A stretch of DNA of 64,000 nt from Desulfovibrio sp. JC010. GTDB lineage: Bacteria; Desulfobacterota; Desulfovibrionia; Desulfovibrionales; Desulfovibrionaceae. This document shows positions 1 through 15,563 of the stretch, one piece after another. The first letter of the stretch is position 1. The number at the start of each line of letters is the position of its first letter. The position numbers were made by a program, and so were the translations under genes. Location of the stretch: positions 186,001 to 250,000 of the forward strand of contig NZ_VOIQ01000003.1 in the NCBI RefSeq assembly GCF_010470675.1. Reading direction: 5' to 3'. Below the pieces are notes generated by a model. It searched no databases. It was not told the DNA's origin and was given only the letters and a program-made list of their open reading frames with translations.

Positions 1-547
1 TTTTATAACTTTTGCTGCTGTGCTTTATTGTTAGGATGTCAAAAAGATCTTGGACTTTTTCTTCACTGCCTAGCTGAGTTTCAATTTGCTCTTTAATGTC
101 TTGCGGAATACGCCGAAATATAATTCTATTTCCATAAAGGCATGTTTCCACCGAACTATTAGGGGGTTTATTCGTTAACAAGACAACTTTTCCAAGTTTG
201 TCTGGAGCTACGGATTTTATGGCCTTATATAATTTTTGCAGCAAAGAAGTTGAACGGGAGGTCTTACCGGATTTTTTGAGTAACCATTCCCAAGTAATTT
301 TGTTATCTTCTTTGTCTGGATTTGGAGTAAATTTAACTTGATAGTAATCTTGCTTGCCGCCCTCTCTAATGCAGGTGATGTCATCTATCCCTTTAGGCGC
401 ATCTGTTTCTTTGTCTGCTTCAAAAAGTACTCTTTCGTATCTACTGGGTGATTCAATCCAATCGGCTAATAATTTAATCCCATGTAATGTTTGATAATCA
501 TAGCCAGTATATGTGATTGCACTGGTTTTCACTTGATCACGCGCCAT
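1..547 (-). CDS. Cap4/DUF4297-like nuclease-domain protein, partial (runs off left edge)
   Basis: An open reading frame of 182 codons starts at an ATG (complement of 545-547) and continues without a stop past the left edge, so only the N-terminus is seen. The order FEADKE, GIDDI, YYQVK within the first 75 residues looks like the acidic and QxK motifs of PD-(D/E)xK-type nucleases of the DUF4297/Cap4 kind, and the opening YTGYDYQ is typical of that group. In known anti-phage proteins such a domain is usually the N-terminal effector of a larger STAND or SAVED protein; the rest of this gene lies outside the window. The family call is from motif memory only. It is divergent from the recombinase gene at 732. 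Confidence 0.5.
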   Translation of the reverse strand, partial: MARDQVKTSAITYTGYDYQTLHGIKLLADWIESPSRYERVLFEADKETDAPKGIDDITCIREGGKQDYYQVKFTPNPDKEDNKITWEWLLKKSGKTSRSTSLLQKLYKAIKSVAPDKLGKVVLLTNKPPNSSVETCLYGNRIIFRRIPQDIKEQIETQLGSEEKVQDLFDILTIKHSSKSYK

Positions 548-696
548 TTTCAATTCCTTTTATTCTAAGTGGGGTAGCTTCTGTGTTTTTTTGTTTTTTA
601 TTCTTTTAATTATTGTCTTGCAAGCATGTATGCAATTAGGCTTCAGTCTTTTGTTTTAATTTTAGGGTGTTGTTGCGAGTGTGTGCGTTGGATTGT

Positions 697-725
697 TTGG
701 TGCCGTGGGAAATATATGCTATAAT
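697..725 (+). promoter_or_regulatory. Candidate promoter of the recombinase gene
   Basis: TTGGTG (697-702), 17-bp spacer, TATAAT (720-725). The ATG at 732 lies only 7 nt past the -10 box, so a transcript from here would be leaderless or nearly so. The -35 match is weak; the -10 is perfect. Confidence 0.4.
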
Positions 726-731
726 ATACCC

Positions 732-1352
732 ATGAAAAACTATCGAATTACACGTGATATGTTTTTCTCCAATTCTCAGACAAATCTCCTGCTTAAAACC
801 TGTCAGCAAATGTCTAAAGGCCAGCCGGATCGTGTAACGCGAATCTGGCGAGTCAGGTATATGCTTGCGCTCCTCGCGCTACGTAGCGGGTTGAGAGTCA
901 GTGAGATTGCGGCCTTGAGCATTGGAGATTTGTTTCTTGAAGGCAACAAAGAACACTACCTGATCGTCCAGAGGGGCAAAGGAGGCAAAAGACGTGATGT
1001 TTATCTTGATGACAAGCTGACTCGTGAAATTCGCAAATTTATCAAGCAAAAGGAAAAATGGAGGGAATCCACCTCCCTAAGATCTCCTCTTTTTGCCGGA
1101 AGGGCGGGCAAGAACTACACAACAACGGCTTTGCACATAAGTTTTAAGGAAATTCTTAAAACCGCTGGATTGCCCAAGCAATACTCTATTCACAGCTGTC
1201 GTCATACCTACGCGACCATGATTTTGGCGAAAAGCTGCAACCTTCGCTTTGTCCAGAAGCAGCTGGGTCACGCCAGCATCAATATGACCGCACATTATGC
1301 GGATGTCCTGCCGGAACTAAATCAGGCTCTGGCGAATACCATTCTTAATTAA
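732..1352 (+). CDS. Tyrosine recombinase / integrase family protein
   Basis: 206-residue site-specific recombinase with the catalytic set of the family: Arg in SGLRVSE, the HSCRH box, LGHAS and the nucleophile Tyr in TAHYADV near the C-terminus. It is short compared with XerC/XerD (about 300 aa) because the N-terminal core-binding domain is reduced, as in small recombinases of mobile elements. The ATG at 732 was chosen over an upstream GTG (681) because a good -10 box sits directly before it. DUF2958 and peptidase-like genes follow. It is more than 14 kb from the tRNA-derived repeat at 15.87 kb, so it need not be the integrase of the surrounding island. The family is secure, the substrate unknown. 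Confidence 0.9.
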   Translation: MKNYRITRDMFFSNSQTNLLLKTCQQMSKGQPDRVTRIWRVRYMLALLALRSGLRVSEIAALSIGDLFLEGNKEHYLIVQRGKGGKRRDVYLDDKLTREIRKFIKQKEKWRESTSLRSPLFAGRAGKNYTTTALHISFKEILKTAGLPKQYSIHSCRHTYATMILAKSCNLRFVQKQLGHASINMTAHYADVLPELNQALANTILN

Positions 1353-6302: not shown

Positions 6303-6752
6303 CTAGAAGCCGAAGAATCTCGCAATAGATTTAAATATTCCAGCACGTTTTTCATTTGGTTTGTCTTGGCGGCCGTCTTTGTTCTGTGTTTCTTCCATGC
6401 TTGTATCATGCTGTTTGTAATGCCGATTCTTATTCAGCTGGTCATGGAACCGTCCAGCATCAATAGCTTTCTGGGACATATTACCTGCCCATACAATTTT
6501 GCTGTTTTTAATGAAGTAATGCGACCTGCACTGATAGCTCCAATTTCCGATTGAAGGAGACAGGGAAACGCTCTCTCCATCGTATGTTAATTTCCAGTCT
6601 GTAGGAGTGAAAGGAGTCACAACTTCTTGCCCGCAACCGCAGGCACACTTGTGAGAGGCGGTTGCAAATTCCATTGAAATATAAAGTGTCCCTTCTTCTA
6701 TTTCAGTTGGGATAAATTCGCAGAATTGAATTTTAAGCTGCTTGGTTGCCAT
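6303..6752 (-). CDS. DUF6527 family protein (third gene of the ubiquitin-like operon)
   Basis: 149 residues. The first 95 residues match the DUF6527 pattern: a short strand (LKIQFCEFIP), a cysteine cluster HKCACGCG, a long strand region and QCRSHYFIKN, giving four to five Cys/His that could hold a zinc ion. The C-terminal 50 residues are polar and probably disordered. DUF6527 genes are known neighbours of multi-ubiquitin and ThiF genes; what the protein does is not established. Its start overlaps the end of the E1 gene; ATG 6752 (GAGAAAG upstream) was chosen, and ATG 6764 is the alternative. A role as zinc-dependent ligase or reader would be pure inference. Confidence 0.75.
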   Translation of the reverse strand: MATKQLKIQFCEFIPTEIEEGTLYISMEFATASHKCACGCGQEVVTPFTPTDWKLTYDGESVSLSPSIGNWSYQCRSHYFIKNSKIVWAGNMSQKAIDAGRFHDQLNKNRHYKQHDTSMEETQNKDGRQDKPNEKRAGIFKSIARFFGF

Positions 6753-7926
6753 CGTCTTTCTCATCCGTGTCTAATAGGGCGCAATTTGTTGAATACGTCA
6801 GATGGTGTTCGTGTTCTAAATCTTGGTAGAATCCACTGAGCTGTTTCCATTTGATGACTGCGAGGCACGCATTTAATGCATTCAGCTCAGCAATTTGAAT
6901 GTTGCTGGCATATTCTCCTCCTGCGACAGCTTCACCCATTGATACTCGTGTCGCAATATGGTCACTTTTGCTTTTCGTGCAGGTTGTAACTCGGCAGGTT
7001 CCCAAAAGTTCCTGACCTACGAGATGTACGTCCATCCCAACGTCTATGACTGTTGAGCTCGTATTGATTAAGGCATCGAAAATGTGTTTTTTGCATCGCC
7101 CATCGTCAACACACATGAACACATAGTCAAAGCCATTGAGTTCCTTGACTGAATTTAGGGAAATCATTTTTTTATGTACAATTATTCCCTTGCGCATTTT
7201 CGAGTACATTGTGGCTAAGTAGTCTACCTTTTTCATGCCTTGACTTAGTTCTTCAAATGAAGCTGCTCCCGGACACCTGAAAGCATTGTGTGAGAGAAAA
7301 TCGTCAGCATCGAAAAGGTGTATCTCGCATACAGGGGTTTTAGCTACGAAGTCTAAAACATACGCACCCGTACCGCCCGATCCGACGATAGCTATACGCT
7401 GTGCTTTCAAACTCTCAGACAAGACTTGAATGCCTGCACGGCTCGAAGCGGTGTCAATATAATTGAAGACCGACTCCTCATTCATGGGCTTAATGGGAGC
7501 ATATGTTCGGGGTGTTACGGTGCTTTCCAAAGCCATCGCTGGATGGGATATGATTTTTACGTACTGTTCCATTTTGGCGAAGTAGTTTTCATATCCTGCA
7601 CTTGGTTTATTGGAAAACGAATGATCAGCCTCCACGTTAGGGGCTAAAGTTTTCTTCCCACTTGAGTGACGTATTGCTTCAATGGGTGTCCCCTTTTCAG
7701 AGCATGGGAACTCTCCTTGAAAGTATATCACGTGGTTATCTGGCTTGGCTGTTTTATCTCCACACAGGGTAAGTGTAGAAATAAGGGTTCCAAATTTAAT
7801 TTCCTTTTGTGCGGAGACGTAAGGGATGGAATGAAGCAGAAGGTGTCCATTCTTTATTTCGACTTCGTACCCTTCATCTCTCAACCGCTTGAGGTCAGGA
7901 CTAAGATTTATCAGTTTTTGTGACAT
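6733..7926 (-). CDS. ThiF/E1-like ubiquitin-activating enzyme with N-terminal DUF6791-like domain
   Basis: 397 residues. Residues about 1-140 look like the DUF6791 domain found before bacterial ThiF modules (SPDLKRLRDEGYEVEI, then PYVSAQ, VIYFQGEFPC). Residues about 170-380 are a Rossmann adenylation domain: IVGSGGTGAYVLD nucleotide loop, LFDADDFLSHNAFR with the Asp and Arg that hold ATP, and YVFMCVDDGRCK with the Asp beside the adenylate. Cysteines at GTCRVTTCT are candidates for the thioester site. E1 proteins adenylate the C-terminus of a ubiquitin-like protein. The gene overlaps the multi-ubiquitin gene by 26 nt and the DUF6527 gene by 20 nt, so the three form one operon. No separate E2 is present. 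Confidence 0.88.
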   Translation of the reverse strand: MSQKLINLSPDLKRLRDEGYEVEIKNGHLLLHSIPYVSAQKEIKFGTLISTLTLCGDKTAKPDNHVIYFQGEFPCSEKGTPIEAIRHSSGKKTLAPNVEADHSFSNKPSAGYENYFAKMEQYVKIISHPAMALESTVTPRTYAPIKPMNEESVFNYIDTASSRAGIQVLSESLKAQRIAIVGSGGTGAYVLDFVAKTPVCEIHLFDADDFLSHNAFRCPGAASFEELSQGMKKVDYLATMYSKMRKGIIVHKKMISLNSVKELNGFDYVFMCVDDGRCKKHIFDALINTSSTVIDVGMDVHLVGQELLGTCRVTTCTKSKSDHIATRVSMGEAVAGGEYASNIQIAELNALNACLAVIKWKQLSGFYQDLEHEHHLTYSTNCALLDTDEKDDGNQAA

Positions 7927-8578
7927 TGATGATCATCCTCTCGCTAATAATGATGGTTTGGCCTTCGACAAGACTTCCTTGGGGGTTTTCTTCAGGACCA
8001 TTCTTGAAAACAATGGTGTGAATTGTGTTGGGAGCAGGCTGAACATTAGGGAAAGCCAACTGAACGAGCTCAGTAAAGGAAAGAGAACGTTTGTTGATTT
8101 CGTGAGGGCGTCCATTAATAATGATAGTGATACTGACTTGTTCAGTATAAAAACGTTCAAGACCGGGGGTATCAAGCCTGACTTCTTCACGATTTGAGAT
8201 AATTTGATCTTCACCCTTGCCGCGAACATTCATCCAAACATCATATGTGTCAGGTGCAACGTCAGCGAACTTTTTAAGTCTCCGGCCTGTAATTACAGGG
8301 GCTCCCCATTCAAATTTTCTTCCATCAACGGTGAAACGGTATGATTCTGCACTTCGGAAAGTTTTAAATCTTTCAAGCCCCGGCTGGCTTAAGTCTACAC
8401 TTTCTTCGAGACGGATTTCCTCGAACTGACCATCTTTCAGTTTCTGGTAAATGATGTGTTCATCAAGAGGATGTTTGTGGGCGATTGTTAAAAGTTGATG
8501 GCCTGTGACCATCGTCTCGCCGAATTCAAACATAGAATCATCAATTTTAACTTTAAAGCATGTCTGATCAGGGGTCAT
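7901..8578 (-). CDS. Multi-ubiquitin protein (three tandem ubiquitin-like domains)
   Basis: 225 residues made almost entirely of three beta-grasp-like repeats: about 4-72 (FKVKIDDSMFEFG, ending QPGLERFKT), about 75-147 (YRFTVDGRKFEWG, ending TPGLERFYT) and about 148-225 (ITIIINGRPHEIN). Repeats 1 and 2 share the order [FY]-x-[VF]-[KT]-[VI]-D, TG-[HR]-[QR]-L, R-L-[ED], PGLERF. This is the Multi_ubiq architecture known from bacterial ubiquitin-like operons. The protein ends in VTKTDKS without a terminal glycine, unlike mature ubiquitin. It is the first gene of a three-gene operon with the E1 and DUF6527 genes. The start has an AAGGAAAA ribosome-binding site. Confidence 0.85.
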   Translation of the reverse strand: MTPDQTCFKVKIDDSMFEFGETMVTGHQLLTIAHKHPLDEHIIYQKLKDGQFEEIRLEESVDLSQPGLERFKTFRSAESYRFTVDGRKFEWGAPVITGRRLKKFADVAPDTYDVWMNVRGKGEDQIISNREEVRLDTPGLERFYTEQVSITIIINGRPHEINKRSLSFTELVQLAFPNVQPAPNTIHTIVFKNGPEENPQGSLVEGQTIIISERMIINVTKTDKS

Positions 8579-8668
8579 AAATATTTTTCCTTGGCAAAAC
8601 TTGCCTGTTTGACAACTATTAATTAGTCATGAATATAGTTGTCGTGATTAAAAGGTCCTTCTATCTTT

Positions 8669-8739
8669 TATGCGCACAGAATGGCGAGTGCGGACAAAAA
8701 AAATAAAAATTTGTCCGCTACTCTTAAAATATGCGCATA
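8669..8739. promoter_or_regulatory. Divergent control region between the ubiquitin-like operon and the sigma/ImmA operon
   Basis: The 226-bp gap holds an inverted repeat GCGGACAAA (8690-8698) / TTTGTCCGC (8710-8718) with an 11-bp A/T spacer, flanked by two copies of TATGCGCA (8669-8676 and 8730-8737) 61 bp apart; the second is part of a palindrome TATGCGCATA. This arrangement looks like operator and promoter sites shared by both operons. Confidence 0.5.
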
Positions 8740-8804
8740 GTTTATAAGAGAGTGCTAAAATTTAGGCACAACTTAGGTAACGAATACCTCGAGGATAGAC
8801 ACTA

Positions 8805-9365
8805 ATGGATGATCCCAGAAAAAGACTTCAATACGTTAATGATTTTGAACAGGCTCTTAAAAGTCTAACCGCTGAAGATATAAAGGCGATTGATTTAGCT
8901 GCCTTCAAATTCGCTGAATCTGTTGCAATTTCTCCAGATTGGCTTGTTCGAGAAGCAATTAAACGGACAGTACGAGGAACACGCAAGTGGCCTCCAAAGA
9001 ACGATATTTCGCTACGGGCTTTTTTATGTGGCGTGATGAAAAGTATAAAAAATGAAGTATGTAGCAATCTGCCCGGAGCTATAGAGTGTCATTACACACA
9101 GCTTAAATCTCATCCTGTACCCCCTGAAGAAGAAATAATTATAAAAGAGCGAGAAGCTTGGGCACAGCAAGTAATCGAGTCAGCCTTTGATCACTTTTCT
9201 AATGATGAAAATGTGTTGACGTACTTAATGGGTAAGGCAGAAGGGTTAACTGGCGAAGAAATTCGTAAACAAGAAGGCATGACGCAGAATCAATACAATG
9301 CTGCTCAGAAGAGACTGAGTAGATATCGTAATGCCAATTATCCAAGGGGGAACAGAAATGAGTAG
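8805..9365 (+). CDS. RNA polymerase sigma-70/ECF-like protein
   Basis: 186 residues. Residues 45-90 contain LVREAIKRTVRGTRKWPP and ISLRAFLCGVMKSIKNEV, the pattern of ECF region 2 (a helix that enters core binding, then a conserved F-L-x-G-x-[MV]-x-[SN] helix). The C-terminus (VLTYLMGKAEGLTGEEIRKQEGMTQNQYNAAQKRLSR) reads as a region-4 helix-turn-helix. Such proteins are known on defence and mobile loci as sigma-like regulators. The start has GAGGAT eight bases upstream. The gene heads a three-gene operon with overlaps, divergent from the ubiquitin-like operon, which is its obvious candidate target. Confidence 0.65.
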   Translation: MDDPRKRLQYVNDFEQALKSLTAEDIKAIDLAAFKFAESVAISPDWLVREAIKRTVRGTRKWPPKNDISLRAFLCGVMKSIKNEVCSNLPGAIECHYTQLKSHPVPPEEEIIIKEREAWAQQVIESAFDHFSNDENVLTYLMGKAEGLTGEEIRKQEGMTQNQYNAAQKRLSRYRNANYPRGNRNE

Positions 9366-9798
9366 CAGGGACATTTCATATCTCCAAGCACTTTGTAATA
9401 TATCTGATGATTACTTGGACTATCTGGATAGTTTAAGTGATGAAGAAATACACGAAGAACATAATGATGTCTTCGGAGATAAATCTAATGAAAGAATTGA
9501 ATCAATAACATCATTATTTAATGATGTTATATCCTTAGAAAAGAAAACATTGGTGTCATGTTTAGCAGAGGAAGAGACAACTAAGCCAATAGATCGTGCA
9601 ATAGTTGGTAGTATTTTAAAAAAGTACGGAAGTTTAAAAGATTTTTTTGTTAAAGGTTTTTTAAATAATTCAAATATGCCTTCAAATATGACTTTGCAAT
9701 ATAGAAATATGACAGACATTACTAATGAAGACATCGAATTGTTAATTGAGACTTTATATGAACATGGGGAACTTCAAATCGAGGAAGATGATTCTTAA
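9358..9798 (+). CDS. Hypothetical acidic protein between the sigma-like and ImmA genes
   Basis: 146 residues, strongly acidic at both ends (EEIHEEHND, QIEEDDS), with no signal peptide and no recognised domain. The ATG at 9358 has an AAGGGGG ribosome-binding site and overlaps the sigma-like gene by 8 nt; its stop overlaps the ImmA start (TAATG). Its place between a sigma-like factor and a regulatory protease makes it a candidate anti-sigma factor or protease substrate. That role is inference. Confidence 0.65.
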   Translation: MSSRDISYLQALCNISDDYLDYLDSLSDEEIHEEHNDVFGDKSNERIESITSLFNDVISLEKKTLVSCLAEEETTKPIDRAIVGSILKKYGSLKDFFVKGFLNNSNMPSNMTLQYRNMTDITNEDIELLIETLYEHGELQIEEDDS

Positions 9799-10577
9799 TG
9801 CGTTTCACTAAACCATATGATTTTTTAAATTATTTTGGTGTATCCAAGCCGGAAGAGATTCGATTAAATGTTTTGTCTTTGGGATGTAATGCTAAAATAA
9901 AGCACAAAACGTTAACAGGGTGTGAAGCATATATTATTGGTGTTGGTGACAATGCCACAATATTTGTATCAAATGAAGTGGGCAGAGCTAGGCAAAGATT
10001 TTGTATTGGGCATGAGTTGGGACATTGGATGTTGGATCGAGGAACTCCGCGATTCAGCTGTACGGAAAAAGACATAGGTGGGCATAATATATTTCAAATG
10101 GGAGTTGAAGCAAGGGCTAATAGATATGCAGCTGATTTGTTGATGCCAGAGTTCTTGTTTAAGCCAGCGTGCTCTGACATGGATATGGATCTAAATTCTG
10201 TAAGAGAGTTGAGTCGTTTGTTTAGAACAAGTTTGATGGCTACTGCAATTAGATTTGTTAAATTTGGTTCCTATCCAGCTATTTTCGCATGGTATAACGG
10301 AAAGAATGGTGAGTTAATTCGCTTTGTGTCTTGCCCAGATCTCCCAGCATGGTTGCGTCCCAGCGACAATTTGCATCATGAAACATATGCTATGGAAATA
10401 TTATGTGGTAAAATGGCTGATTCTGGAGGTCCTAAACCTGTGCAGGCTAGTTGCTGGTTTAACACGCGAAATGCTTATGAACATGATGTGCATGAACACT
10501 CCATAAAGGGATACGGGGATATGGTCTTAACTATGTTATGGTGGAAAGATGAATCAATGCTTGAAGAATTTCTTTAG
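9798..10577 (+). CDS. ImmA/IrrE-family metallopeptidase
   Basis: 259 residues. The zinc-peptidase motif HELGH lies in CIGHELGHWMLDRG (about residues 73-86) and a downstream helix EARANRYAADLLMP supplies the usual third ligand region. This is the ImmA/IrrE (COG2856) pattern. Family members cleave repressors or other regulators to switch on mobile-element or stress genes. There is no fused helix-turn-helix domain. It is translationally coupled to the unknown acidic gene before it and followed by a terminator. Alternative roles, such as trimming the ubiquitin-like chain, cannot be excluded because no JAB peptidase is present. Confidence 0.85.
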   Translation: MRFTKPYDFLNYFGVSKPEEIRLNVLSLGCNAKIKHKTLTGCEAYIIGVGDNATIFVSNEVGRARQRFCIGHELGHWMLDRGTPRFSCTEKDIGGHNIFQMGVEARANRYAADLLMPEFLFKPACSDMDMDLNSVRELSRLFRTSLMATAIRFVKFGSYPAIFAWYNGKNGELIRFVSCPDLPAWLRPSDNLHHETYAMEILCGKMADSGGPKPVQASCWFNTRNAYEHDVHEHSIKGYGDMVLTMLWWKDESMLEEFL

Positions 10578-10732: not shown

Positions 10733-11662
10733 TTATTCCAAGCATTTCTCAAGCTTCCGAACAGCCTCAGCATGCTTCTTGGCGTTCTTCCTCAGCTTCT
10801 CAATATTATGCAGCTTCCAAAGCACGGCAGGAAGTTGAGCGGCGTGAGGGATTTCCAGAAGTTCCCATTCAGGATTTCCTTTTTTGACGGAGAGCAGGAA
10901 TTGCTTGTCGTCATCGCTTAGGCCAGACTTGATTTCTTGGACCAACTGGGCGCGGGTGGCTTCCAGTTTTTCAAGGGCAACTTCAGTCTGTGTCATCCCA
11001 CGGAATTCTTTTTCGTAGGCATCGGTTAAGGGTTGGAAATTGGGGGTCAGAATTTCCGACATTGGGCGATTGTGTCCCAGTAGGTAGACGAGAAATGCCT
11101 TTCGGATTTTCTCGGTCAGCCCTTCGGTGTCGAGAAGTTGGGCCACATCAAAAAGATCACGTGGATGTTGGCGATCCAGCGCAGCGCATATTTTCCCACC
11201 GTACAGATCATGAATGGAAAGGCGGCGTACCTCTGCTGCCATTTCAAAGCGGCGTTCAACTTCCGGCTGTAGGTCCGAATATTCTGTCTCATATACTGTG
11301 CCGCGAATGGTGGCATTGGGTTCAATCTTGACCATTACCCCATCGTGCTTGATTAAGACTTTGGGAGCGGCATTGTTTGGCGCGGTCAGATTTACTGCTG
11401 CGGTAGGCATGATTCTTTCCACCTGCTTCGCAAGTCTTTGCATGCTTTCTGAAATATCACGCAGGGCTGTCTTGCGGTCATTGATTGGGCAGTAAGCAAG
11501 GTCAATGTCTACGGACAGGCGTGGCAGGTTCCAAAGGAAGAAGTTCAGGGCCGTACCGCCTTTCAGGGCGAGGAATGCTGAACCGTCACCGTTGGGATGG
11601 TCATATTCAATCAGGGACAAGACACGCAGCAGGATGCGCACCTGCTTTTCGTATTTATTCAA
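10733..11662 (-). CDS. AbiEii/AbiGii-family nucleotidyltransferase toxin
   Basis: 309 residues. The N-terminus has the family signature LKGGTALNFFL followed by RLSVDIDLAY, the nucleotide-binding and metal-binding (DxD) motifs of AbiEii/MenT-type nucleotidyltransferases. Residues 150-180 (LYGGKICAALDRQHPRDLFDV) are also typical. Family members act as toxins of type IV toxin-antitoxin systems that block growth during phage infection. Start overlaps the stop of the AbiEi gene (ATGA), the usual order antitoxin then toxin. Confidence 0.88.
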   Translation of the reverse strand: MNKYEKQVRILLRVLSLIEYDHPNGDGSAFLALKGGTALNFFLWNLPRLSVDIDLAYCPINDRKTALRDISESMQRLAKQVERIMPTAAVNLTAPNNAAPKVLIKHDGVMVKIEPNATIRGTVYETEYSDLQPEVERRFEMAAEVRRLSIHDLYGGKICAALDRQHPRDLFDVAQLLDTEGLTEKIRKAFLVYLLGHNRPMSEILTPNFQPLTDAYEKEFRGMTQTEVALEKLEATRAQLVQEIKSGLSDDDKQFLLSVKKGNPEWELLEIPHAAQLPAVLWKLHNIEKLRKNAKKHAEAVRKLEKCLE

Positions 11663-12438
11663 AACAGTTCCTCTTCATTGTTCTTGGGGACGGTGATGTT
11701 GAATTCTTTATCCAGCATGCCGTTTTTTACTATTTCGCGTTTGCCGGAGCCTAATTGGATGCTGTCGCGTTTGATGCGGGAAAGCCAGCGGTGTCCGCTC
11801 TCTCTGGCAAGGTAAAGGAATAGCCTTTTGGCTTTGATGCTATTGCACTCTTCGAGTAGTGTTTGGAGAAGTGTGGGCCGTAAAGTACCGAGCCCTTGCA
11901 TCAGTTGAAAAGCTTCATCGAAACTTACTTTTTGCGGTACGTGGTGCAGCAGTTCAAGTATGGCGCGTTCTGGGGAGGATATTTTTACCGTAAAAGTTCC
12001 AGCATAGTGTTCAGTGAAGCTGTCGGAAGGACTATCAGAAAATAGTGAGGTGGAAGTGAAGACTACTTTTTGTCCCCAATCGTATCTGGCAAACCATGCC
12101 GCCAGTTTTGTTTTGGGGGGAGCAAAAAGGAATATTTCACGCTTCTGTGCTGAGACGTAGTGGGTATAGCCCTGAAGCTCAAGAGCCGTTCTGCCCCCGG
12201 CATGGATGAATGGCTTGTCTTTTTGTTGCAAGCTATGCAGGCCACCGAGCCAAGTGGGCGTGTCATGCGATTTGGCATATGCGCCACGCCCAACGGAAAC
12301 AAGCCAGCCTTGCTCCATGTATCCTTGGACAAGTGACTTGTTGATTTCCAGCTTCGCTAGCTCCTCGGAATTTTTTATGGTCCCGTTGGGCCACGCCAAC
12401 ATGAGTTGGTTTATTTTTGTTCCTCTTGTTTGGTCCAT
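11659..12438 (-). CDS. AbiEi-family antitoxin / transcriptional regulator
   Basis: 259 residues. The N-terminal part is a winged helix (SEELAKLEINKSLVQGYMEQGWLVSVGRGAYAKS), the known DNA-binding domain of AbiEi. The C-terminal part has PERAILELLHHVPQKVSFDEAFQLM, as in AbiEi_3. AbiEi antitoxins repress their own operon and oppose AbiEii. It is immediately upstream of, and overlaps, the toxin gene. Confidence 0.85.
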   Translation of the reverse strand: MDQTRGTKINQLMLAWPNGTIKNSEELAKLEINKSLVQGYMEQGWLVSVGRGAYAKSHDTPTWLGGLHSLQQKDKPFIHAGGRTALELQGYTHYVSAQKREIFLFAPPKTKLAAWFARYDWGQKVVFTSTSLFSDSPSDSFTEHYAGTFTVKISSPERAILELLHHVPQKVSFDEAFQLMQGLGTLRPTLLQTLLEECNSIKAKRLFLYLARESGHRWLSRIKRDSIQLGSGKREIVKNGMLDKEFNITVPKNNEEELF

Positions 12439-12593: not shown

Positions 12594-13217
12594 TTACTTA
12601 ACGGAAATGGAATGACCATCTAAGCACAGGGTTTTCAACCTTCTCAAAGAGGATATTTTATCATCCTGTAGTTGAATCCATTCTAGGGCTGGCATTTTTT
12701 TACCGCATGGGGGATTCCCTTGGAAGACGTCCATACTCAGGTCCAATTCTTCTAGATTTTGTAATTCCGTGATGTTGTCAGGTAGGCCTGTGAGCGGATT
12801 GTTACTCAAGTTAAGTCTTTTCAATTGAGGCAGGTTGCATATCGGCTCAGGAAGAGTTGTAAATAAATTGTTTTTTATGTCCAACTCTTCAAGATTTGAT
12901 AATTTCCCAAATGAAGGCGGTAGGTCTGATAATAAGTTCTTGTGTAGATGCAGTGTTTTAAGTTTGGTCAGTTTCCCGATTGAAGTGGGGAGGCTCGTTA
13001 AATTTATGCCAATAATTTTTAGTTCTTCAAGATCGCTGAGTTCACCAATTAAGTCCGGTAATTGTACTGGGGCGAAAATTGGTTCTTCCTTTAGCTCATA
13101 GCTGGAAATAGTTAGCGAGGTCTGTTTGCATATTTTGGCGGTTAAAATTTTATATAAAATAGTTCCGTTGATGAAGAATTTTACCTTGTTACCATATGGG
13201 TGTGCAGTTTTGGGCAT
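12594..13217 (-). CDS. Leucine-rich-repeat protein
   Basis: 207 residues. From about residue 60 it has five to six repeats of the 23-residue bacterial LRR type (LEELKIIGINLTSLPTSIGKL, LKTLHLHKNLLSDLPPSFGKL, and so on), with the LxxLxLxxN/xLxxLP pattern. The N-terminal 50 residues do not match the repeat and there is no signal peptide. LRR proteins bind other proteins. No partner is evident; it stands alone between the AbiE pair and the RiPP cluster. Confidence 0.8.
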   Translation of the reverse strand: MPKTAHPYGNKVKFFINGTILYKILTAKICKQTSLTISSYELKEEPIFAPVQLPDLIGELSDLEELKIIGINLTSLPTSIGKLTKLKTLHLHKNLLSDLPPSFGKLSNLEELDIKNNLFTTLPEPICNLPQLKRLNLSNNPLTGLPDNITELQNLEELDLSMDVFQGNPPCGKKMPALEWIQLQDDKISSLRRLKTLCLDGHSISVK

Positions 13218-13581: not shown

Positions 13582-13878
13582 ATGTCTTTTAGTTGCGTAA
13601 AATGTGGGAATTGTTGCAGATGTATAGATGTGGTTGATGGTTTAAAACACTTGCAAAATGGTAATGGGATTTGCATTCACCTCAAAGGTAATTTGTGCTC
13701 AATTTATGCAGATAGACCTAGCCTGTGCCGATATGGATCTGTAAGAGAAATGTATAAAGATATTCTCACCAACAATGAATTTGATGAATTATGTGAATTA
13801 ATTTGTAATAAATTACAAAAGGGAAATTTTGATGAAGTTAGATCATGGGCTACTGAAGAAGATTCAGAGGCAGTTTAA
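13582..13878 (+). CDS. YkgJ-family cysteine-cluster protein
   Basis: 98 residues. CVKCGNCCRC near the N-terminus followed by CIHL and LCSIYADRPSLCRYG is the YkgJ signature (FxCxxCGxCCR ... C ... C-x-I-Y-x-x-RP-x-x-CR), which binds a metal or FeS centre in known members. It is the first gene of a tight cluster and overlaps the radical SAM gene by 47 nt. In this setting it may assist the radical SAM enzyme; that is inference. Confidence 0.8.
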   Translation: MSFSCVKCGNCCRCIDVVDGLKHLQNGNGICIHLKGNLCSIYADRPSLCRYGSVREMYKDILTNNEFDELCELICNKLQKGNFDEVRSWATEEDSEAV

Positions 13879-14863
13879 TTTTGAGTCCAAGTCTATATCT
13901 GAAGGTATTAAAAATAAAACCTATCCATCCTCCTATAACTTTCCTATAGGAATTCAGTTAGAATTAACTGAGAAATGTAATCTGTATTGTAAACATTGTT
14001 ACAATGCTTCAGGAGGTGCTGTAAAAGAGGAATGTTTGAATGTTGACGATTGGAAAAGGGTTACGTCACGTATCATAGACGCAGGCGGCGTATTTCAGTG
14101 TATCATTTCGGGAGGTGAGCCTCTTCTTCTTGGGGATGATCTTATCGATATAATGAGTCCATTGCATGATGATGGGAGTGGTTTCATCTTGATTACTAAT
14201 GGATATTTAGTAGATAGTGATTGGATTAATAGGTTAAAAGAATTTCGTTATTTCTGGGTTCAAGTCTCAATTGATGGGGTTTGTGAAAAGGTTCATGACG
14301 ATTTCCGAGGAAAAAGAGGAAGCTGGGAAAAAGCTAAGAATGCAGCCCTTCTGTTTTCTGGGGCTGGATTTCCATTGCGCATTGCGCACACAGTTACTCC
14401 ATATAATTTGAAAGATCTTACCTCGTTCATCAGGTTTGCATATCATTTAGGGGCATCCTCTGTTGTTTGTGGAGATGTGATGCTAAGTGGTCGTGCAAAT
14501 TTGAATCAAGATTTATTATTATCGCGGAAAGAACTTTCTGAAATGTATGATCAAATTGAGCTATTGCAAGATGAGTATGCAGGAAGAATGGCTATATTGC
14601 CTAGTTCTCCACCGAGTTTAGATTTAGTTCTCAAAAGTTCAAAGCCTAATGGTAGTGTGATTATTCGTCCGAATGGGGATGTTCGGTTGGATTGCACTCT
14701 TCCTTTTGTTATCGGTAATGTGTTAGAGGATGATTTGCTTACGATATGGAATGATAAAGGCATTTCATGTTGGGAAAATGAGGATGTCGTAAAATATATC
14801 AGTGATAAACAAAACGGCATTCTGACACATGTTAACCATTGTGATAATGATTTTAGAATTTGA
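13832..14863 (+). CDS. Radical SAM peptide-modifying enzyme
   Basis: 343 residues. The canonical radical SAM cluster motif CNLYCKHC (residues about 51-58) is followed by GGEPLL (SAM binding) and the barrel strands WVQVSIDG and RIAHTVTPYN. The C-terminus has a reduced SPASM-like part (GDVRLDCTLPFVIGNVLED, then IWND) with too few cysteines for full auxiliary clusters. Neighbours are two small alanine-rich peptides and a PqqD-like gene, so it most likely modifies those peptides. ATG 13832 has an AAAGGGA ribosome-binding site. The product chemistry cannot be told from sequence. Confidence 0.85.
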   Translation: MKLDHGLLKKIQRQFNFESKSISEGIKNKTYPSSYNFPIGIQLELTEKCNLYCKHCYNASGGAVKEECLNVDDWKRVTSRIIDAGGVFQCIISGGEPLLLGDDLIDIMSPLHDDGSGFILITNGYLVDSDWINRLKEFRYFWVQVSIDGVCEKVHDDFRGKRGSWEKAKNAALLFSGAGFPLRIAHTVTPYNLKDLTSFIRFAYHLGASSVVCGDVMLSGRANLNQDLLLSRKELSEMYDQIELLQDEYAGRMAILPSSPPSLDLVLKSSKPNGSVIIRPNGDVRLDCTLPFVIGNVLEDDLLTIWNDKGISCWENEDVVKYISDKQNGILTHVNHCDNDFRI

Positions 14864-14873
14864 GGTTGGCCCT

Positions 14874-15071
14874 ATGAATAAACAGAAATATGTTCCGCCA
14901 ATAGTTTCGGCTGCGACCCCCCAGAATGGCCTCCCTACTTGTTTAGCCGTAGGGGCTGTTTCGGCGGTAGGAGCAGCTGCAGCTGTTGCTATCGGTAAAA
15001 TGGTTGGTGACATTAATACATTTTCAAAGCAAGCATCTCTTAAACTTGTTGAGAAAACAAATTATGAGTAA
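14874..15071 (+). CDS. Candidate RiPP precursor peptide 1
   Basis: 65 residues starting MNKQKYVPPIVS. The leader part has a Y-x-x-P-x-I-x-S motif shared with the next peptide; the middle (AVGAVSAVGAAAAVAIGK) is an Ala/Val/Gly-rich run, then a charged tail. It has no domain, lies directly after the radical SAM gene and before a PqqD-like gene, and shares its leader with the neighbour: the signs of a modified-peptide precursor. YxxP leaders are known to be bound by RRE domains in lasso-peptide systems. ATG 14874 was preferred to an upstream start because of GAGG and because the shared leader begins there. Confidence 0.65.
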   Translation: MNKQKYVPPIVSAATPQNGLPTCLAVGAVSAVGAAAAVAIGKMVGDINTFSKQASLKLVEKTNYE

Positions 15072-15270
15072 AGAATATACGACTCCAACAATTCACTCTC
15101 AGAGTCAGCTAAATGCTGCCGCTCCTTTAGCTTTTTTCTCTGCTGCTACTGCCGCCGCCGCTGTTGTTGGGGCTGCAGCAGGCGCAGTTGCAACTTCTTT
15201 AGCTCTCGGGGATGATAATTGTCCCTCAAAAATGAAAACTTTACCTCCGATAAGGTGTAAAAATAGTTAA
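15064..15270 (+). CDS. Candidate RiPP precursor peptide 2
   Basis: 68 residues starting MSKEYTTPTIHS, again with Y-x-x-P-x-I-x-S. The middle is an Ala/Val/Gly run (AATAAAAVVGAAAGAVATSLAL) and the tail carries two cysteines (DDNCPSK and IRCKNS). Its start overlaps the end of peptide 1 by 8 nt, so the two are co-translated. The pair looks like a diverged duplication. Cleavage site and modified residues are not evident. Confidence 0.65.
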   Translation: MSKEYTTPTIHSQSQLNAAAPLAFFSAATAAAAVVGAAAGAVATSLALGDDNCPSKMKTLPPIRCKNS

Positions 15271-15278
15271 GGAAAGGT

Positions 15279-15563
15279 ATGTTCACGTATTTTAAGGATC
15301 TAGTTCCACATCCAATATATCTTAAAAAAAGGTACGATGAGAGAACGTCATTCACCACGATTACAAATTTAGATTTGGAGATTTTTTTTCTAAATGAAAC
15401 TAGCTCATTCTTTCTTAATTGTGTGGATTCATTAAAGACAATAAATTCTATAGTGGATTTATTTGTAGAAGAGTATGATGTCTCTAAAGATGTTGTTAGT
15501 AATGACATCATTGAATTAGTCCGAGATTTGCAGTGGAAAAAAATTATTGTTCTTAATGAATAG
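15279..15563 (+). CDS. PqqD-like RiPP recognition element protein
   Basis: 94 residues with the PqqD pattern: LEIFFLNETSSFFLNCVDSLKTINSIVDLFVEEYDV (the central helix before the winged-helix part) and VSNDIIELVRDLQWKKIIVLN (C-terminal helix and last strand). PqqD-type proteins hold the leader peptide and present it to the radical SAM enzyme. AAGGAAAGG precedes the ATG at 15279. It ends the cluster. Confidence 0.75.
   Translation: MFTYFKDLVPHPIYLKKRYDERTSFTTITNLDLEIFFLNETSSFFLNCVDSLKTINSIVDLFVEEYDVSKDVVSNDIIELVRDLQWKKIIVLNE

What the first reader, a model, noticed from the sequence alone, without database searches (positions are those of the whole stretch)
6303..8578. Three-gene ubiquitin-like conjugation operon (multi-ubiquitin, DUF6791-ThiF E1, DUF6527)
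Seen: three overlapping reverse-strand genes encode a protein of three ubiquitin-like domains, an E1-like adenylating enzyme and a cysteine-rich DUF6527 protein. Known: multi-ubiquitin/ThiF operons exist in bacteria, and related ubiquitin-like operons act in phage defence; this lineage is much less studied. Inference: with AbiE, WYL and Cap4-like genes around it, this is a defence or stress module inside an island.
Basis: partly seen in the sequence, partly recalled or inferred. Interest (0 to 1): 0.85.

Follow-up and report, generated by a model that had tools for sequence, protein, structure and literature searches.

The report
Ubiquitin-like operon with serine-ended modifier
A bacterial gene trio resembling the ubiquitin system, probably a stress-triggered defence module, makes a three-part ubiquitin-like protein that ends in serine where known modifiers end in glycine.

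Summary
In detail: three overlapping reverse-strand genes encode a triple multi-ubiquitin protein, a DUF6791-ThiF E1 and a DUF6527 protein. The layout is known: class 6e, JAB-less variant, of Iyer et al. 2006, related to the Bub pathway (top fold match BubCD, Z 24.1, tied with ThiF). It lacks Bub's E2 and JAB. Beyond that I found that the Ubl linked to this E1 ends exactly in Ser in 97 of 97 loci. The 13 Bub-type Ubls read carry Gly at or before the end of the Ubl part, L135 unclearly. Ubl and E1 overlap by 26 nt in 89 of 89, yet codon use shows selection on the Ser. Adenylation residues are intact; Tyr339 aligns with BubCD Y370. A divergent sigma-like gene, small protein and CapP-like peptidase adjoin a dyad with one exact site in the genome. 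Best reading: a stress-induced Bub-like conjugation system with DUF6791 as E2 or protease. Conjugation and phage defence are untested. Two key papers were not available, so priority is uncertain.

The parts
7901..8578 (-). Triple beta-grasp ubiquitin-like protein (225 aa) ending ...NVTKTDKS
   Evidence: Pfam Multi_ubiq x3, 2.9e-57; PDB 9cd2 1.3e-51, also ending TDKS
7904..7906 (-). Codon of the C-terminal Ser of the Ubl
   Evidence: Ser at the last position in 89 of 89 loci and 8 of 8 further E1-linked Ubls
7901..7926 (-). 26-nt overlap of Ubl end and E1 start
   Evidence: Same overlap in 89 of 89 loci; codon-position test in 81 distinct ones
6733..7926 (-). DUF6791-ThiF E1-like enzyme (397 aa)
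   Evidence: Pfam; NCBIfam NF004805 PRK06153.1-4 over cut-off; model pLDDT 89.4; VIA top row BubCD Z 24.1, rmsd 2.6, 223 aligned
7450..7899 (-). DUF6791 domain (E1 residues 10-159), with H65, C75 and S105
   Evidence: Pfam 3e-60; H65 and S105 75/75, C75 72/75; all three kept in the 10 further relatives with letters there
6910..6912 (-). Codon of E1 Tyr339, aligned with BubCD Y370
   Evidence: Y 75/75; Y in 13/13 Bub E1s, residue 370 in L116
6303..6764 (-). DUF6527 protein with C36, C38, C40, C75 and H78; likely start 6752
   Evidence: Pfam 8.1e-26; those residues invariant in 56 aligned; model pLDDT 89.1
8690..8718 (.). Dyad GCGGACAAA-N11-TTTGTCCGC between the divergent genes, probable operator
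   Evidence: Only exact site in the 4.39-Mb genome, one more place at 3 mismatches; GGAC-N14-30-GTCC in 7 of 8 loci with this sigma-like family against 4.25% of random stretches; pattern chosen after looking
8805..9365 (+). Sigma-factor-like protein (186 aa), divergent; weak assignment
   Evidence: No Pfam hit itself; in one blastp cluster with L035, whose Sigma70_r2 match has E 0.0053, below cut-off
9331..9798 (+). Small protein (155 aa), candidate anti-sigma factor and peptidase target
   Evidence: Same place between sigma-like and CapP-like genes in relatives, short shared patch seen by eye; no Pfam hit
9798..10577 (+). CapP-like (IrrE/ImmA) metallopeptidase
   Evidence: PADLOC capP 1e-50; Pfam Peptidase_M78 2.2e-11; divergent HExxH peptidase in 35 of 65 loci

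Best explanation
A Bub-like ubiquitin-type modification system, held silent until stress. Shown by sequence: a triple beta-grasp Ubl with a genetically fixed C-terminal Ser, an E1 with all adenylation residues, a DUF6527 protein with a likely metal site, and divergent regulator-like genes. Inferred: the E1 adenylates the Ser carboxylate of the Ubl, which needs no trimming because the stop codon sets the end, so no JAB is needed. The Ubl passes to Tyr339, the equivalent of Y370 in the Bub E1, as an oxyester. It then goes to the DUF6791 domain of the same polypeptide (C75 or S105), which plays the part of the missing E2, and on to a target, with DUF6527 helping recognition. Also inferred: DNA damage activates the CapP-like peptidase, which cuts the 155-aa partner and frees the sigma-like protein to act at the dyad at 8690-8718. 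The product limits phage or other invading DNA.
For: Families and residues. BubCD is the top fold match. DUF6791-E1s form one clade (26 of 26, support 0.88) apart from Bub E1s (13 of 13, 0.95). Tyr339 is invariant and aligns with Y370, which was mutated in PDB 9eav by its title. C-terminal Ser in 97 of 97 while the third base of its codon is free (G30/T27/A23/C1 of 81) and E1 residue 8 drifts R30/L27/H23/P1. A DUF6527 hit in all 89 loci listed. CapP-like gene divergent in 35 of 65, downstream in 3 of 65. Dyad in 7 of 8. Mobile setting: 115 plasmid records.
Against: No assay. Profile comparison of DUF6791 with Bub E2s (P 0.29) is hardly different from that with JAB (0.36), and no E2 model appears among the 25 of 30 Pfam families shown for 75 members. 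C75 is H or R in 3 of 75. BubCD and ThiF are tied in fold score, and in the tree an own-genome ThiF-family protein falls on the Bub side, so a sister relation of the two clades is not shown. Three Ubls outside the clade (L010-L012) also have Ser as last residue, behind a Gly-Gly. E1 substrates named in the passages I saw end in Gly. Bub operons have not been shown to protect against phage. 30 of 65 loci lack a divergent CapP-like gene and 14 of 65 had none of the genes I modelled. The Bub locus L127 has the cassette but not the dyad at this spacing. No E1 homologue in 50,697 phage records.
Confidence: 0.45

Rival explanations
1. DUF6791 is not an E2 but a protease standing in for JAB (Ser-Lys or Cys-His type) that removes the Ubl from targets; conjugation runs from E1 to target without an E2.
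For: DUF6791 occupies the place of JAB in front of ThiF (domain X of Iyer 2006). H65 and S105 75/75, K118 74/75, C75 72/75. From memory only, the abstract of Ye et al. mentions Ser-Lys proteases in Bub operons.
Against: The exact Ser end argues against trimming, since the tails after Gly in Bub vary. No protease model among the Pfam families shown for 75 members. K118 is Q in L136 and in 1 of 75.
Confidence: 0.25
2. The E1 only activates the Ubl tail for a small-molecule or nucleotide modification, like ThiF, MoeB or MccB; nothing is conjugated to protein.
For: No E2 gene of family E in the genome. ThiF, MoeB and MccB folds match nearly as well (Z 23.2, 22.0, 22.0). MccB is known (recalled) to work on a non-Gly C-terminus (Asn).
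Against: Tyr339 and the top fold match point to Bub. Three tandem beta-grasp domains suit a modifier or polymer better than a carrier (inference).
Confidence: 0.15
3. The Ubl is mainly a structural protein (dimers or filaments) with the E1 as a scaffold or switch; the conserved end is a docking tail.
For: [quoted passage not shown] filaments by three-domain Ubls recalled). 9cd2 is a solved relative.
Against: The E1 adenylation residues are kept in 75 of 75, D206 in 74 of 75.
Confidence: 0.1
4. The Ser end is a by-product of the fixed 26-nt overlap and the E1 start, without a role of its own.
For: Both reading frames are partly constrained in the overlap (mean entropies 0.60/0.96/0.76 at E1 codon positions 1/2/3).
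Against: E1 residue 8, which shares the Ser codon, varies freely (R30/L27/H23/P1 of 81), and E1 residues 1-7 are modelled with pLDDT under 50, as if unstructured.
Confidence: 0.05

Closest known systems
Class 6e polyUbl operons with E1 domain X, Iyer et al. 2006 (PMC1779556)
   Same: PolyUbl of two to three domains, E1 with a distinct domain instead of JAB, and a metal-binding protein; that these are DUF6791 and DUF6527 is inferred from position
   Different: The passages seen do not speak of the Ser end, the overlap or the regulators
Bub pathway (BubA Ubl, BubB E2, BubCD JAB-E1)
   Same: E1 fold (Z 24.1), invariant Tyr at Y370, DUF6527 gene, multi-ubiquitin domains, CapH/CapP-type genes or, in L127, the sigma-like/small protein/IrrE cassette upstream
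   Different: Here no E2 of family E and no JAB, DUF6791 instead, and the Ubl ends in Ser without a Gly before it
Bil pathway
   Same: Tandem beta-grasp Ubl and E1
   Different: Bil has E2 and DUB and a two-domain Ubl whose Gly end is exposed by cleavage (PMC11354881 passages)
CBASS Cap2 (E2-E1 fusion)
   Same: An N-terminal domain fused in front of the E1 domain; weak PADLOC E1-E2 matches within residues 136-305
   Different: No E2 profile match to DUF6791; no CD-NTase among the proteins scanned
CapH + CapP controllers
   Same: CapP-like peptidase divergent from the operon
   Different: In this window a sigma-like protein and a small protein stand where the HTH repressor CapH would be

Membership tests
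[quoted passage not shown]
   Three Multi_ubiq stretches
Iyer 2006 class 6e, variant with domain X | E1 with a distinct domain in place of JAB | tested here: met
   DUF6791-ThiF, no JAB match; that X is DUF6791 is inferred, as no accession was compared
Iyer 2006 class 6e, variant with domain X | Metal-binding protein Y in the operon | tested here: met
   DUF6527 with four invariant Cys and H78; metal binding itself not tested; the Synechocystis pSYSX operon also holds DUF6527
Bub | E2 gene or E2 fused to Ubl | tested here: not met
   No Prok-E2_E match in the whole own genome, none in the three genes; other E2 families were not searched genome-wide
Bub | JAB fused to E1 | tested here: not met
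   Pfam finds DUF6791 there instead
Bub | E1 fold and Tyr at Y370 | tested here: met
   Z 24.1; Y339 aligned with Y370
Bub | Oxyester intermediates | not testable with these tools
   Recalled from an abstract that I could not open
E2 (UBC) fold for DUF6791 | Homology to prokaryotic E2 family E | tested here: inconclusive
   hhalign P 0.29 against 14 Bub E2s; the structure comparison barely tested this domain
CBASS type II (Cap2) | E2 domain N-terminal to E1 | tested here: inconclusive
   PADLOC E1-E2 models match within residues 136-305
CapH + CapP | CapP-type peptidase | tested here: met
   PADLOC capP 1e-50
CapH + CapP | HTH repressor CapH as partner | tested here: not met
   No PADLOC match for 8805-9365 or 9331-9798; a capH match exists in relative L026
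Anti-phage defence system | Protects cells from phage | not testable with these tools
   Needs phage challenge

The most novel reading that the evidence does not exclude
A ubiquitin-like pathway that has given up the C-terminal Gly for an obligate Ser: one polypeptide combines activation (ThiF, Tyr339) and transfer (DUF6791), no E2, no JAB, and the Ser end is part of the chemistry, for instance by making or receiving an ester at its hydroxyl. It is switched on by a sigma-like factor released by a CapP-type peptidase.
Probability: 0.3. Interest if true: 0.85.

Novelty: new variant of a known kind. Interest (0 to 1): 0.62.

Why it matters
The other modifiers of this kind that I could compare carry Gly at or near the end (L135 unclear). 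A clade found in many phyla and on plasmids, with a bare Ser end and neither E2 nor JAB in the operon, is a natural test of what E1 enzymes need from a substrate and of how few parts a conjugation system can have. The sigma-like, small-protein and CapP cassette, seen whole in one Bub locus (L127) and in part in another (L135), suggests a further way in which damage could switch on defence operons.

Tried and rejected
DUF6791 as E2 or as JAB by profile comparison: both inconclusive; an earlier attempt with four E2s likewise. Pfam scan of 75 E1s for E2 or protease models: none among the 25 of 30 families shown. DUF6527 fold: no Foldseek match at E 0.001 or better, best VIA Z 2.5, so no relative can be named. 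E2 family E in 395 genomes of the phylum: 3 hits, too few for a profile; DUF6791 in the same set: 2 of 395, own genome included. Sigma-70 promoter scan of 8400-8950: nothing, against 1.5 expected. No tRNA in the window. Papers: DUF6791 and DUF6527 0 papers each; the listings showed no paper on a Ser end. I cannot say that it is unpublished, because Gong 2025 and Ye 2026 are not held. Dyad: the inverted-repeat score alone beat shuffles clearly in only some regions; GGAC-N16-26-GTCC was in 5 of 16 regions, shuffles mean 0.12, at most 2. That pattern was chosen after looking; the spacing was then widened to 14-30, which brought in L038, and the 7 of 8 includes the loci that suggested it. In one search the backward control pattern had 3 matches per strand at up to 3 mismatches, the pattern itself 2. 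The first intergenic stretches of L035 and L038 were cut wrongly and redone. Dropped: L101 (near-duplicate of L084), L038 and L107 (too short); L099, counted, was never put. In one search the peptidase profile also hit genes on the operon's own strand (8 of 65 with HExxH). The host organism was not identified.
Full report
WHAT IS THERE. The three reported genes are at the stated places. The first, 7901-8578 on the reverse strand, has three Multi_ubiq stretches (E 2.9e-57). The second, 6733-7926, is DUF6791 (3e-60) followed by ThiF (3.6e-11). The third, 6303-6764, is DUF6527 (8.1e-26). The solved protein 9cd2 ('ZDHYS365 multi-ubiquitin domain protein') matches the Ubl from residue 10 to its very end, also ending TDKS, so a structure of a relative exists.

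KNOWN CLASS. Table row 6e of Iyer et al. 2006 (PMC1779556, passages seen) lists operons with a polyUbl, an E1 of which some versions have 'a distinct domain in place of the JAB domain', and a metal-binding protein. That fits this operon. The name Bub is used for a related family (Ubl, E2, JAB-E1); 219 of 544 Bub operons have CapW or CapH+CapP beside them, and protection from phage has not been shown (PMC13373217, section 7 and passages).

SPREAD. There are 115 plasmid records with a match out of 72,556, none in 50,697 phage records, and none for the operon DNA by blastn in the E. coli genomes. Multi_ubiq occurs in 7 of 288 genomes of the family and DUF6791 in 3 of 288, own genome included; the 16 same-genus genomes listed have neither. 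DUF6791 is in 2 of 395 genomes of the phylum, own included. The stretch has low G+C.

THE SERINE END. In 89 of 89 loci (80 genome contigs, 8 plasmid loci, the window; some near-duplicates, 81 distinct) the E1-linked Ubl ends exactly in Ser, with Thr at -4 in 87 of 89, and its end lies 26 nt inside the E1 start. Eight further E1-linked Ubls also end in Ser, among them those next to E1s 39 and 41% identical to ours. An unlinked second Ubl copy in L139 ends in Ala. L113 had no Ubl detected; L137, L140 and L141 are cut at the locus end. Because the genes overlap, I tested which frame is conserved. In the 81 distinct loci the Ser codon is TC followed by G30, T27, A23 or C1; the free base is the second base of E1 codon 8, so E1 residue 8 drifts R30/L27/H23/P1. 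Selection therefore acts on the Ubl serine. E1 residues 1-7 are modelled with pLDDT under 50.

CONTRAST WITH BUB. Of 14 Bub-type plasmid loci, 13 gave a Ubl (L129 lacks its Ubl start, and in L117 the JAB-E1 gene is broken off). The six unfused ones end in TTEG (twice), TTEGGAA, INPGQN, TSPGVR and TFGHGNH; the seven fused to E2 run past TTEG- or NNGE-like stretches into the E2, except that L135 shows no clear such stretch. A JAB-linked paralogue in L030 ends in RGG. Ubls of three family genomes next to JAB-like frames (L010-L012) end in GGASS or SGGSS: their last residue is Ser too, but behind Gly-Gly, so they may be an intermediate or be trimmed. In a tree of 42 ThiF domains 26 of 26 DUF6791-E1s form one clade (0.88) and 13 of 13 Bub E1s another (0.95); an own-genome ThiF-family protein falls on the Bub side, so their relation is not resolved.

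THE E1. The adenylation residues are kept in 75 of 75 (D206 in 74), but no Cys is conserved in the ThiF domain (C272 is Cys in 52 of 75). In the joint alignment Y339 (75 of 75) falls on residue 370 of the E. coli plasmid BubCD relative L116, and Tyr is there in 13 of 13 Bub E1s. The title of PDB 9eav names D104A and Y370F; in L116 the JAMM motif starts at H91, which puts its Asp at 104, so the numbering agrees. That Bub runs through oxyesters is recalled, not read.

DUF6791. H65, G71, P74, G79 and S105 are 75 of 75, C75 72 of 75 (H twice and R once, in L082, L085 and L109); H65, C75 and S105 are also kept in the 10 further relatives with letters there. The domain has a helix, a run of strands and a closing helix, which could suit a UBC fold, but profile tests do not show it. 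E2 and protease remain open.

DUF6527. C36, C38, C40, C75 and H78 are invariant in 56; the confident model finds no solved relative. A DUF6527 hit is on all 89 loci, in L053, L067 and L104 further downstream. It is annotated in 10 of the 14 Bub loci fetched, so it belongs to the shared core.

REGULATION. Of 65 loci with at least 3.5 kb upstream, window included, 35 have a divergent HExxH CapP/IrrE gene within 4 kb, 8 one on the operon's own strand, and 3 one within 4.4 kb downstream; 15 of 65 have the divergent peptidase and a sigma-like gene. The window's peptidase matches capP at 1e-50. The sigma call is weak: Sigma70 models hit relatives below cut-off and the window protein not at all. Bub loci L127 and L135 carry a similar sigma-like gene (1.1e-26 and 7.3e-8 to the profile), followed in L127 by an ImmA/IrrE gene; in L135 the stretch ends before that. 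In 7 of 8 loci with this sigma-like family a GGAC-N14-30-GTCC dyad lies in the 300 nt before the Ubl, against 4.25% of random stretches of the same loci and 5 of at most 73 other loci; L040 has a CAGACA/TGTCTG variant. In the window it is GCGGACAAA-N11-TTTGTCCGC at 8690-8718, the only exact site in 4.39 Mb. Other loci have a sigma-like gene, a small protein and a GajB-like UvrD helicase (L025, L027, L029, L030) or WYL.

VERDICT. New variant of a known kind. Shown: anatomy, serine end under selection, E1 competence by residues, no JAB and no family-E E2, regulator-like cassette with a dyad. Inferred: adenylation of Ser, Tyr339 oxyester, DUF6791 transfer, damage switch, defence.

Noticed in passing
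window 13582-15563: Possible RiPP cluster: Cys-rich ORF, radical SAM/SPASM protein (13829-14863, Pfam), two small Ala-rich peptides (14829-15270) and a 94-aa ORF that looks like a PqqD-type domain by eye only.
   Followed up: partly
window 2-553: Cap4-nuclease-like ORF (Pfam 9.8e-12) running off the window start; the gene continues outside.
   Followed up: no
window 681-1352: Phage-type integrase (6.8e-28) at the low-G+C end; no tRNA in the window.
   Followed up: no
window 10733-12438: AbiEi/AbiEii pair, strong PADLOC matches (8.7e-84, 3.9e-111).
   Followed up: no
window 12594-13217: Short leucine-rich-repeat protein.
   Followed up: no
L025 11747-17650 and L027 15179-18113: Tn7-like transposition genes (TnsA, TnsD, Mu-type transposase) beside the operon in a Klebsiella and an Acinetobacter plasmid, so it may travel as transposon cargo.
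   Followed up: no
L025, L027, L029, L030, L052, L060, L072: Recurrent trio near the operon: sigma-like about 260 aa, about 190-aa protein, UvrD-type helicase (in L027 1130 aa, PADLOC RTasHel 1.1e-80 and GajB matches); a possible effector arm.
   Followed up: partly
L139 7522-7758: Second Ubl copy on the opposite strand behind the operon, ending TNNA rather than Ser.
   Followed up: no
L010, L011, L012: Ubls whose last domain resembles ours but ends PGGASS or PSGGSS, next to JAB-like frames; may show an older Gly-containing state, yet the last letter is also Ser.
   Followed up: no
L042, L045, L082 intergenic: A second sigma-like family goes with a different dyad (GTGAC/GTCAC or CCGTGA/TCACGG), about 21 nt apart, seen by eye and.
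   Followed up: partly
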